Assembly: GCA_026874595.1 (NCBI GenBank) | Contig: CM049313.1 | Coordinates: forward strand, 55,782,159-55,846,158 | DNA: 64,000 nucleotides | Reading direction: 5' to 3' | From: Sipunculus nudus | Taxonomy: Eukaryota > Annelida > Sipuncula > Golfingiida > Sipunculidae | Shown: in pieces, positions 31,574 to 33,060 of the stretch | Numbering within the stretch: position 1 is the first letter of the stretch | Layout: each line of letters starts with the position of its first letter | Translations under genes and position numbers: made by a program | The notes under the pieces: generated by a model | Database searches by the model: none | What the model was told of the DNA's origin: nothing | What the model saw: only the letters and a program-made list of their open reading frames with translations

Positions 31574-31731
31574 TGTTAAGAAGACAAATAAATAAGGGGA
31601 AAATCCTGGGCCGATCCAGGAGTCGAACCCATGTCGGTGGCTCACAAGTCTGGCGTCCCAACCGCTTCGCTAGAAAAGCATGCTTCACTAGCGAGACAGT
31701 TCGGTCCGCTTTTATGTCACCACATAACACA
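31574..31731 (-). repeat. TRIM LTR copy 1 (3' terminal)
   Basis: 158 bp, TGTGTTATG...CTTAACA on the minus strand, preceded by the purine tract AAAAGGGGA. The sequence after its 3' end (31573 downward, GTATACAAACAC) is not a primer binding site. It is presumably host flank, so this is the 3'-most LTR of the array. Confidence 0.7.
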
Positions 31732-31848
31732 TCCCCTTTTAAGAGCTTTCTACTATCAGAACAAGACTAATTATCCCAGGATTCACACTTTGGTGAGCTT
31801 ATTCCCTTGGCCACAAAGTAAACCATCCCTTTAGACGAGCCCCCATTT
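31732..31848 (-). other. TRIM internal spacer 1 with PBS and purine tract
   Basis: 117 bp between LTR copies 2 and 1. Minus strand: AAA, then the primer binding site TGGGGGCTCGTCTAA (845 downward), then 'tttgtggccaagggaataagctcaccaaag', ending in the purine tract against LTR copy 1. Confidence 0.65.
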
Positions 31849-32006
31849 TGTTACAAAGTCAAATTATTCAGGGGAAAATATCGGGCCGATCCCAGATTCG
31901 AACCCATGTTGGTGGTGCACATGTCCGGTGTTCCAACCGCTTCGCTAGCACAGCAAGCTTCACTAGCGAGACAGTTTGGTCCGCTTTTATGTCACCCCGT
32001 AACACA
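31849..32006 (-). repeat. TRIM LTR copy 2
   Basis: 158 bp, TGTGTTACGG...TTTGTAACA on the minus strand. The TGTTAC/GTAACA ends are inverted. It contains a TATA-like CATAAAAG near the 5' end, box A and box B (see next entry), and a T-run downstream that could end a Pol III transcript. Confidence 0.72.
31875..31947 (-). promoter_or_regulatory. tRNA-like Pol III promoter inside LTR copy 2
   Basis: Minus strand: box A TAGCGAAGCGG at 31947-31937 and box B GGTTCGAATCT at 31904-31894, close to the consensus TRGCNNAGYGG and GGTTCGANNCC and about 32 bp apart. A TTTT run at 31878-31875 follows as a possible terminator. The same boxes occur in the other three LTR copies (box B GGTTCGACTCC and GGTTCGAAACC variants). 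Confidence 0.65.
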
Positions 32007-32124
32007 CCCCCTCTTAAGAGCATTCTGCTCTCAGAATAAGACTAACTAATCCAGGAGTCACACATTGGTGAGCTTATTCCCTGGGCCACAAAGTTTACCA
32101 ATCATGTAAGACGAGCCCCCATTT
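32007..32124 (-). other. TRIM internal spacer 2 with PBS and purine tract
   Basis: 118 bp. Minus strand: the primer binding site TGGGGGCTCGTCTTACATG starts at 32121, and the purine tract AAGAGGGGG ends at 32007, directly before TGTGTTACGG of LTR copy 2. Confidence 0.68.
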
Positions 32125-32283
32125 TGTTTCGAAGACAAATAAATGAGGGGAAAAATTCTGGGTCTATCCCGGTTTCGAACCCAGGTCGGTTGCGCACAAG
32201 TCCGGCGAACCAACTGTTTCGCTTGCAAAGCAAGCTTCACTAGCAAGACAGTTTGGTCAGCTTTTATGTCACCCCGTAACACA
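32125..32283 (-). repeat. TRIM LTR copy 3
   Basis: 159 bp, TGTGTTACGG...TTCGAAACA on the minus strand, with the terminal GTAACA altered to GAAACA. Box A (AAGCGAAACAG) is more diverged than in copy 2. Box B is GGTTCGAAACC. Confidence 0.68.
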
Positions 32284-32392
32284 CCCCCTTGTTCTGCTAT
32301 CAGAACAACACTTATTATCCCAGGAGTCATACTTTGGTGAGCTTATTCCCTGGGCCACAAAGTAAACCGTCATACGGGACGAGCCCCCATTT
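32284..32392 (-). other. TRIM internal spacer 3 with the best PBS
   Basis: 109 bp. Minus strand: TGGGGGCTCGTCCCGTATG starting at 32389, whose first 13 bases equal the complement of a typical tRNA-Pro 3' end. The spacer ends in AAGGGGG directly before LTR copy 3. Confidence 0.68.
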
Positions 32393-32512
32393 TGTTACGA
32401 AGACAAATAAATGAGGGGAAAAATCCTGGGCCAATCTGGGAGTCGAACCCAGGTCGGTGGCGCACAAGTCCGGCGTCCCAACCACTTTGCTATAAAAGCA
32501 TGTTTCACTAAT
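32393..32512 (-). repeat. TRIM LTR copy 4 (5'-truncated)
   Basis: About 120 bp of the LTR 3' part. On the minus strand it ends ...TTCGTAACA. The 5' part (TGTGTTACGG...) is missing. The break coincides with the first unit of the 95-bp minisatellite at 32513. Confidence 0.65.
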
Positions 32513-33060
32513 CAAGTGACTGTAATAGCGAAGTGTCTGAAATAGAGATGCATATGTCTGTAACAGAGATGTTACAGTATCAATGTCTACAGTTTACAAG
32601 ACTGCCTCAAGTGACTGTAATAGAGAAGTGTCTGTAATAGAGATGCATATGTCTGTAACAGAGATGTTACAGTACCAATGTCTACAGTTTACAAGACTGC
32701 CTCAGGTGACTGTGATAGCAAAGTGTCTGTAATAGAGATGCAAATGTCTGTAACAGAGATGTTACAGTATCAATGTCTACAGTTTAAAAGACTGCCTCAA
32801 GTGTCTGTAATAGAGAGATGTTTGTGATATAGATATGTCTGTAACAGAGAGGTTAAATTTATCAAAGTCTAAAGTTTATAGTACTGAATCAAGTGTCGAC
32901 AATTTACAGGAATCTCTCAGGCATCTGTAATAGGTAATAGAGAGATCCCAGTAACATAGAGATCCCTGTTTCAAAAGAGGTTCCAGAAATAGAAAAGTGC
33001 CTGTAAAAGTTCAGAGAGGTTACATACCTCTAAGTGTACAATTAGCACGACTGCCTAAAG
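32513..33060. repeat. 95-bp minisatellite, about four good units plus decayed tail
   Basis: Units start at 32513, 32608, 32703 and 32798 ('caagtgactgtaatag...agactgcct'), spaced exactly 95 bp. From about 32830 the periodicity decays but 'gtctgtaacagagaggtta' pieces continue. Each unit contains shorter internal repeats of the type 'tctgtaa.agag'. Confidence 0.85.

What the first reader, a model, noticed from the sequence alone, without database searches (positions are those of the whole stretch)
31574..32512. Tandem TRIM-like retroelement whose LTRs carry a tRNA-type Pol III promoter
Seen on the minus strand: three complete 158-159 bp units with TGTGTTA...ACA ends plus one truncated unit. They are separated by 109-118 bp spacers that start with TGGGGGCTCGTC (complement of a tRNA-Pro 3' end) and end in a purine tract. 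Each LTR has TAGCGAAGCGG (box A) and GGTTCGAnTC-type (box B) sequences, and a T-run downstream. Known knowledge: TRIMs are LTR elements without genes, and plant Cassandra TRIMs carry a 5S rRNA promoter in the LTR. A tRNA-like promoter in an animal TRIM LTR would be the parallel case. Inference: the LTR may be made by Pol III as an RNA of about 100 nt, and the array arose by LTR-LTR recombination.
Basis: partly seen in the sequence, partly recalled or inferred. Interest (0 to 1): 0.78.

Follow-up and report, generated by a model that had tools for sequence, protein, structure and literature searches.

The report
Tandem Helenus retroelement with tRNA-like promoter
This is an old, broken tandem copy of a tiny gene-less jumping element of the known Helenus kind, and sister copies elsewhere in the same animal genome record how it seems to borrow the copying machinery of a larger element that starts from the same transfer RNA.

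Summary
Window 31574-32511 (minus strand) holds one truncated and three complete LTRs (156-157 bp, TGTTA start), separated by three internal regions of 111-120 bp with a tRNA-Pro primer site and a purine tract. In the same animal genome 16 of 32 distinct two-ended elements have an exact 4-bp target duplication, against a shuffled mean of 1.76. A SINE is refuted. The kind is published: Helenus, TRIMs with a tRNA-like sequence in the LTR (Kojima 2024). What is added here is a driver and its footprints. A Gypsy element with a SCAN-type gag and integrase before RT has the same primer site but no detected internal similarity. Reciprocal Helenus/Gypsy hybrids are joined at the primer site; one has a perfect 4-bp duplication. 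Other copies run on into tRNA-Pro itself, or turn back into the LTR's own tRNA-like T arm (49 junction matches, 0 in control); two of those read have duplications. Pol III transcription is unproven: box B is no better conserved than the rest of the LTR. The host is an unnamed bilaterian. New member of a known kind, with unusually direct evidence for its helper.

The parts
32393..32511 (-). LTR A, truncated at its 5' end (about 40 bp of U3 missing), abutting a 95-bp tandem repeat
32125..32281 (-). LTR B, full length, box A broken
31849..32004 (-). LTR C, full length
31574..31729 (-). LTR D, full length, 3'-most of the array
32282..32392 (-). internal region 1 (PBS 32378-32389, PPT 32282-32290)
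32005..32124 (-). internal region 2 (PBS 32110-32121, PPT 32005-32015)
31730..31848 (-). internal region 3 (PBS 31834-31845, PPT 31730-31740)
31937..31947 (-). box A-like TAGCGAAGCGG in LTR C
   Evidence: read
31662..31672 (-). box A-like TAGCGAAGCGG in LTR D
   Evidence: read
32482..32493 (-). box A-like ATAGCAAAGTGG in LTR A
32440..32449 (-). box B-like GGTTCGACTC in LTR A
32172..32181 (-). box B-like GGTTCGAAAC in LTR B
31895..31904 (-). box B-like GGTTCGAATC in LTR C
31620..31629 (-). box B-like GGTTCGACTC in LTR D
32419..32423 (-). T5 run after box B, LTR A (candidate Pol III stop)
32151..32155 (-). T5 run after box B, LTR B
31875..31878 (-). T4 run after box B, LTR C
31600..31603 (-). 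T4 run after box B, LTR D

Best explanation
It is a decayed tandem copy (LTR-i-LTR-i-LTR-i-LTR) of a Helenus-type TRIM: a gene-less LTR retrotransposon whose LTR holds a tRNA-like box A/box B sequence. Shown by sequence: TG..CA LTR ends, tRNA-Pro primer site, purine tract, 4-bp target duplications, and hybrids with one Gypsy family. Inferred: an RNA starting inside the 5' LTR (probably Pol III) and ending at a short T run in the 3' LTR is packaged into particles of this tRNA-Pro-primed Gypsy (SCAN-type gag, integrase before RT), reverse-transcribed from tRNA-Pro and integrated by the Gypsy integrase. Because both RNAs have in common only the primer site and end motifs, plus-strand strong-stop DNA (LTR + 18 nt copied from tRNA-Pro) sometimes lands on the wrong partner: on the other element's primer site (LTR/leader hybrids), further into the tRNA, or on the T-arm-like sequence of the Helenus LTR (inverted or duplicated LTR pieces).
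For: 4-bp duplications in 16 of 32 distinct two-ended elements, shuffled mean 1.76, largest 7 in 1000; 0 of 32 at 3 or 5 bp. 17-nt tRNA-Pro primer site at 614 places, 0 for the reversed pattern; the best match to tRNA-Pro stops at exactly 18 nt in 56 of 80 sampled regions, 17 being required by the search; the TGG that pairs with the tRNA's added CCA is absent from the tRNA-Pro genes read. Of the 80 regions: 34 Gypsy LTR/Gypsy leader, 20 with Helenus internal region after a Helenus or unassigned LTR, 2 Helenus LTR/Gypsy leader, 1 Gypsy LTR/Helenus internal region. Genome-wide junction matches within 3 mismatches: 33 Helenus LTR to Gypsy leader (27 within 2) and 14 Gypsy LTR to Helenus internal region, 0 in either control. 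The hybrid L208 (Gypsy 5' LTR, Helenus internal region and 3' LTR) is flanked by AATT on both sides. Gypsy ORFs: SCAN in L145; in L143 Integrase_H2C2 (86.3 bits) and rve (32.4, cut-off 32.6) lie 5' of RVT_1 and RNase H. Both elements end the internal region with AGGGGG(A/T)G before TGTTAC, and both are found in (AT)n tracts. For Pol III: AATAAA or ATTAAA after LTR position 45 in 0 of 76 LTRs and a T run after box B.
Against: No transcript, particle or Pol III data. Box B is not better conserved than the rest of the LTR (0.939 against 0.923; 38% of windows as good), box A only top 10%; the most conserved stretch is GACATAAAAGC, which could be a Pol II TATA. The T run lies in the 5' LTR too and is usually only T4 (65 of 76), so read-through must be assumed. 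Half of the two-ended elements have no exact 4-bp duplication, and 3 of 32 have equal 6-bp flanks (L006 and L025 in simple repeats, L018 GTGTAT). Only 4 of 12 distinct non-canonical loci whose context was read have a clean duplication; 2 lie in (AT)n and 6 have no readable or matching second end. The shared primer site would in principle allow DNA-level exchange.
Confidence: 0.8

Rival explanations
1. A tRNA-derived SINE, moved by a LINE, that happens to lie in tandem.
For: Box A/box B-like sequence and T run.
Against: Fixed 4-bp duplications at TGTTA..TAACA ends, primer site, purine tract, LTR-i-LTR units, hybrids with a Gypsy.
Confidence: 0.02
2. An ordinary TRIM driven by a Pol II promoter (ATAAAA box at about LTR 15-20), the tRNA-like sequence being a passenger.
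For: GACATAAAAGC is the best conserved stretch of the LTR; box B is average.
Against: No AATAAA or ATTAAA after LTR position 45 in any of 76 LTRs, whereas the Gypsy LTR has TATAAA and AATAAA; the box A pattern is in 64 and a lenient box B in 51 of 76 LTRs; Kojima reports box conservation across families (PMC10886601).
Confidence: 0.3
3. The hybrids and inverted LTRs were made by recombination or rearrangement of integrated DNA, not during reverse transcription.
For: The common primer site could serve as a short homology; the site is abundant. 8 of the 12 non-canonical loci read have no clean duplication.
Against: Target duplications AATT, TGGC, CCTT and ATAC around four such products; tRNA sequence with the complement of CCA at junctions; junctions at the PBS or T arm.
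Confidence: 0.12
4. A tandem satellite unrelated to transposition.
For: Head-to-tail 275-bp period in the window, next to a 95-bp tandem repeat.
Against: Dispersed copies on many contigs: of 39 elements in 38 fetched loci, 15 have one LTR, 19 two, 4 three, 1 four.
Confidence: 0.02

Closest known systems
Helenus (TRIMs with tRNA-like LTRs; Kojima 2024, PMC10886601; outline, parts 1-4 of 6 and the figure/table section read)
   Same: Short gene-less LTR element, box A/B-like sequence in the LTR, PBS to a tRNA 3' end (tRNA-Pro is listed for bivalves), PPT, 4-bp duplications in animals, tandem arrays (reported for a zebrafish family), Gypsy suspected.
   Different: Published sequences could not be compared. 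The paper found no complementarity between the LTR tRNA-like part and the PBS; here the 8-mer ATCCCGGA, complement of the primer site's 3' end, is in 32 of 76 LTRs. It infers the animal driver from PBS similarity; here recombinants are shown.
Cassandra (5S-bearing TRIM of plants; Kalendar 2020, PMC7215508; passages and Discussion read)
   Same: Pol III-type promoter in a TRIM LTR; long tandem LTR-internal arrays.
   Different: 5S, not tRNA; plants; autonomous partners called unknown in that Discussion.
biv-TRIM (Satovic 2019, PMC6934838; abstract, Results part 1 of 2, Discussion and passages read)
   Same: Animal TRIM with tandem arrays and solo LTRs.
   Different: TDRs 202-218 bp, internal 77-80 bp, no clear PBS; its conserved inner motif is not above chance in the window.
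Gmr1-like Gypsy (the driver; PMC4131045 passages read; Goodwin and Poulter 2002 seen only as a reference title, that it describes Gmr1 is recalled)
   Same: SCAN domain and integrase before RT.
   Different: No phylogeny was made; the order is shown in one locus (L143) and SCAN in another (L145).

Membership tests
Helenus (TRIMp3) | Short non-coding element with two LTRs, under 1 kb | tested here: met
   LTR 156-157 bp, internal 115-117 bp in 6 copies measured; 19 of 39 elements are two-LTR
Helenus (TRIMp3) | tRNA-derived sequence with box A and box B in the LTR | tested here: met
   Box A pattern in 64 of 76 LTRs, strict box B in 40, lenient in 51 of 76; likeness to a particular tRNA not scored
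Helenus (TRIMp3) | PBS and PPT at the ends of the internal region | tested here: met
   tRNA-Pro PBS; PPT such as AAGAGGGGGTG
Helenus (TRIMp3) | 4-bp target duplication in animals | tested here: met
   16 of 32 distinct elements, shuffled mean 1.76
Helenus (TRIMp3) | Sequence relationship to a published Helenus consensus | not tested
Helenus (TRIMp3) | Functional Pol III promoter (proposed, not shown, in the paper) | tested here: inconclusive
   Conservation does not single out box B; no poly(A) signal after position 45; no expression data
tRNA-derived SINE | No LTRs, no PBS/PPT, variable-length duplications (recalled definition) | tested here: not met
biv-TRIM | TDR 202-218 bp, inner TGATCCCAAAGGAC motif, no clear PBS | tested here: not met
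   Lengths; motif at chance level; PBS present
Gmr1-like Gypsy (the driver) | Integrase upstream of RT; SCAN-type gag | tested here: met
   IN and RT in L143, SCAN in L145
Gmr1-like Gypsy (the driver) | RT tree places it with Gmr1 | not tested
   No tree was built

The most novel reading that the evidence does not exclude
The LTR's tRNA-like sequence and the primer tRNA are near enough alike that the strong-stop DNA confuses them: its 3' end (TCCGGGAT, the copy of tRNA-Pro up to the modified A58) anneals to the LTR's own T arm and primes a copy of the LTR backwards, making palindromic LTR-PBS-inverted-LTR insertions as a steady by-product. By the same read-through and jump, primer-tRNA sequence enters LTRs, so tRNA-promoter TRIMs could be born from their own primer tRNA and not, as proposed, from a SINE landing in an LTR. 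The first half (decoy) I rate at about 0.55; the number below is for the whole.
Probability: 0.15. Interest if true: 0.78.

Novelty: new member of a known kind. Interest (0 to 1): 0.5.

Why it matters
Who drives Helenus is open: the 2024 paper inferred a Gypsy for animals from primer-site similarity. Reciprocal recombinants joined at the primer site, one with a clean target duplication, point to a driver family in one genome although no internal similarity between the two elements was detected. The method can be repeated for other TRIMs without known partners (Cassandra, biv-TRIM). The tRNA-decoy products make a testable link between a tRNA-type promoter inside an LTR and errors of strand transfer, and bear on how tRNA sequence gets into retroelements.

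Tried and rejected
SINE reading: rejected by duplications and LTR structure. Satellite reading: rejected by dispersed copies. biv-TRIM: rejected. Functional tRNA or structured RNA: no tRNA by ARAGORN or Rfam; folding z 0.20 and 0.26. Promoter conservation as proof of Pol III use: did not discriminate. Age or origin of the window array from LTR divergence: neighbouring LTRs 0.83-0.84 identical, random pairs 0.892, neighbours in other elements 0.87-0.97: undecided between unequal exchange and concatemer formation. Host naming: Egg_lysin and hemocyanin gave nothing, but the controls were silent too. Of 11 COX1 matches I read three loci, L039, L040 and L042; I judge them bacterial from their open frames, so no mitochondrial contig was found; L041 was not read, the rest not fetched, and one short match on C5 was not followed. 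A scan of bacterial genomes with one of these proteins kept 80 loci, all 52-58% identical (near records may be left out there). A one-strand run of 10 homeodomains on C12 says bilaterian; 141 C1q matches fit but do not prove a bivalve. About 17 large contigs is an estimate from the contig lengths seen. Window ORFs against Pfam: 10 of 34 tested, one sub-threshold DUF. Literature: 9 searches. The name Helenus was seen only in Kojima 2024 among the 20 listed of 1,092 papers and the 10 listed of 67. No title in the listings was about an LTR T-arm decoy; these are a few term searches in one open-licence library. PMC10986323 passages were seen and not used.

Full report
WHAT IS THERE. On the minus strand of window 31574-32511 lie one truncated and three complete LTRs, separated by three internal regions. 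Each internal region begins a few bases after an LTR end with TGGGGGCTCGTC and ends in a purine tract before TGTTA. TGGGGGCTCGTC occurs three times in the window, all here, and never in 100 shuffles. The array's 5' end abuts a 95-bp tandem repeat (32512-32878), so the first LTR has lost about 40 bp.

COPIES AND DUPLICATIONS. A search of the window's own genome with one LTR gave 43 matches; only 40 of 3066 candidates were scored, so this is a lower bound. I fetched 38 loci. They hold 39 elements: 15 with one LTR, 19 with two, 4 with three, 1 with four; some of the single ones are followed by primer-site-like sequence and are not true solo LTRs. 34 are two-ended; two were dropped as repeats of the same flanks (L023, a duplicate of L005; L029, whose (AT)n flanks equal those of L006), leaving 32. 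Of these 16 have an exact 4-bp duplication; right flanks shuffled among elements give a mean of 1.76 and at most 7 in 1000 runs. Equal 3-bp and 5-bp flanks: 0 and 0; equal 6-bp flanks: 3, two in simple repeats and one, L018, not. L011, an LTR-i-LTR-i-LTR array, has ATGT on both sides. The duplications fix the LTR ends as TGTTACG..CGTAACA.

PRIMER. The 17-nt complement of the tRNA-Pro 3' end occurs at 614 places, the reversed pattern at none. I fetched 80 regions covering 81 of the 100 places listed. tRNA-Pro(TGG) genes of the same genome were confirmed by ARAGORN in three loci; the two whose letters I read lack the TGG that pairs with the added CCA, the elements have it. Against the complement of tRNA-Pro plus CCA the best match ends at 18 nt in 56 of 80 regions, 17 in 11, 19 or 20 in 4, 26 in 6, and 34, 38 and 63 nt in one each (L175, L187, L190). 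17 nt were required by the search. 18 nt is the length expected when copying stops at modified A58 (recalled). Genome-wide, the 34-nt pattern has 31 matches within 3 mismatches: 16 lack TGG and are taken as tRNA genes, 14 begin with TGG, 1 with TTG.

THE DRIVER. The 80 regions fall into: Gypsy LTR/Gypsy leader 34; Helenus LTR/Helenus internal 13; unassigned LTR/Helenus internal 7; Helenus LTR/inverted Helenus LTR 6; unassigned/inverted 1; Helenus LTR/other 5; Helenus LTR/Gypsy leader 2; Gypsy LTR/Helenus internal 1; Helenus LTR repeated 1; neither 10. L125/L126, L134/L135 and L165/L166 are identical or near-identical pairs and count twice there. Five downstream stretches were fetched. In L143 integrase domains (Integrase_H2C2 86.3 bits; rve 32.4, just under its cut-off) lie 5' of RT and RNase H; L145 has a SCAN domain; L147 has RT. 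Integrase before RT with SCAN is what I recall of Gmr1-like Gypsy elements; that more than half of Gmr elements in a frog study have SCAN I saw in passages of PMC4131045. Its LTR is about 790 bp with TATAAA and AATAAA. The window's LTR and internal region gave no match (E up to 1e-5) in the five downstream stretches, so apart from the primer site, the purine-tract end and the TGTTAC/GTAACA ends I detected no similarity. Helenus copies have (AT)n on both sides in 4 of 34 elements, against 0.11% of window positions; the 3' ends L143, L145 and L147 of the Gypsy also run into (AT)n, that in L144 does not.

HYBRIDS. L172/L208: a Gypsy 5' LTR, the primer site, a Helenus internal region and a Helenus 3' LTR, flanked by AATT on both sides. 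L128/L147: a Helenus LTR (its first bases changed) on a Gypsy body with a Gypsy 3' LTR, both outer sides in (AT)n. L142: a Helenus internal region that carries about 147 bp of Gypsy leader, both outer sides in (AT)n. The first two are mirror images and are what an intermolecular plus-strand transfer predicts: strong-stop DNA of one element lands on the primer site of the other, so only the 5' LTR is foreign. Genome-wide, Helenus LTR to Gypsy leader: 33 matches, 27 of them within 2 mismatches; of the 6 at 3 mismatches at least 3 do not go on as the leader, and close pairs on C9 and C14 may each be one event. Gypsy LTR to Helenus internal: 14. Reversed controls: 0 in both. These matches are junctions only; most were not read in context.

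TRNA DECOY. In L134 (= L135), L141, L169/L213, L197/L214 and L204/L215 the primer site is followed by an LTR read backwards from its box B. L134 (TGGC) and L214 (CCTT) have exact duplications around the whole LTR-PBS-inverted-LTR unit, which has two U3 ends. The two arms are 0.944 alike in L134 (arm against 75 other LTRs: mean 0.889, best 0.947) and 0.957 in L214 (mean 0.901, best 0.957, a set that may include the same locus as L197): nearer than average, not unique. In L213 the inverted part changes into inverted Gypsy LTR (my reading). L190/L212 reads LTR, 63 nt of tRNA-Pro complement at 4 mismatches, then a partial LTR, with ATAC on both sides. L187/L211 ends its second LTR with 38 nt of tRNA-Pro; no duplication was seen there. 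L130 repeats a 60-bp PBS-plus-LTR-end piece. Of 12 distinct non-canonical loci whose context I read, 4 have a clean duplication, 2 lie in (AT)n (L142, L128), 6 lack a readable or matching second end (L141, L213, L215, L216, L211, L130). The junction PBS+TTCGAACCCAT has 49 matches within 2 mismatches, control 0; most were not read. The 8-mer ATCCCGGA, complement of the primer site's 3' end, is in 32 of 76 LTRs. Whether the decoy is the cause is inference.

TRANSCRIPTION. 76 distinct near-full LTRs, chosen by likeness to the LTR of L140, were aligned. Box A is in the top 10% of windows for conservation, box B is average, and GACATAAAAGC is best. The longest T run at positions 111-142 is T4 in 65 of 76, T5 in 5, shorter in 6. 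No AATAAA or ATTAAA follows position 45 in any of the 76. If Pol III starts upstream of box A, the 5' LTR run must often be read through, and R would be about 85 nt. This is a model.

THE WINDOW ARRAY. Its LTRs are 0.80-0.90 identical in pairs, neighbours 0.83-0.84; random LTR pairs 0.892, sd 0.030. It is old or built from different copies; its primer sites have decayed to 12-13 nt. It is unlikely to move now.

KNOWN OR NEW. Kojima 2024 defines Helenus, lists tRNA-Pro primers in bivalves and suspects Gypsy for animals. The element is a new member. tRNA sequence trapped in retroviral DNA has precedent (HIV and MMLV cases cited in PMC12220202, passages seen). The origin of SINEs from strong-stop DNA was proposed long ago (recalled, not read). 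Changes made on re-checking the calls did not alter any odds.

Noticed in passing
window 32512-32878: A 95-bp tandem repeat (3.9 copies, 88% matches) directly abuts the truncated LTR.
   Followed up: no
G000 contigs C60, C61, C62, C66, C72, C74, C75, C89, C123: Nine near-equal COX1 matches of about 578 codons and one on C123; those read (C60, C61, C123) look bacterial, and one has only 52-58% identity to the 80 bacterial loci kept. A bacterium may have been sequenced with the animal.
   Followed up: partly
L219-L221 (G000 C14 about 19.08-19.16 Mb): tRNA-Pro(TGG) genes repeat about every 3.65 kb, with tRNA-Gln in the three loci scanned; a second series of tRNA-Pro-like matches lies on C5 about 41.6-41.7 Mb.
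   Followed up: no
L124, L133, L137, L152, L173, L177, L179, L184, L200: Regions with the 17-nt tRNA-Pro primer site but flanks that match neither Helenus nor the Gypsy; possibly other element families.
   Followed up: no
L213: A triple hybrid by eye: Helenus LTR, primer site, inverted Helenus LTR piece, then inverted Gypsy LTR.
   Followed up: partly
LTR positions 12-22 in 76 copies: GACATAAAAGC is the most conserved stretch of the LTR and lies roughly 40 bp upstream of box A, like a TATA element.
   Followed up: partly
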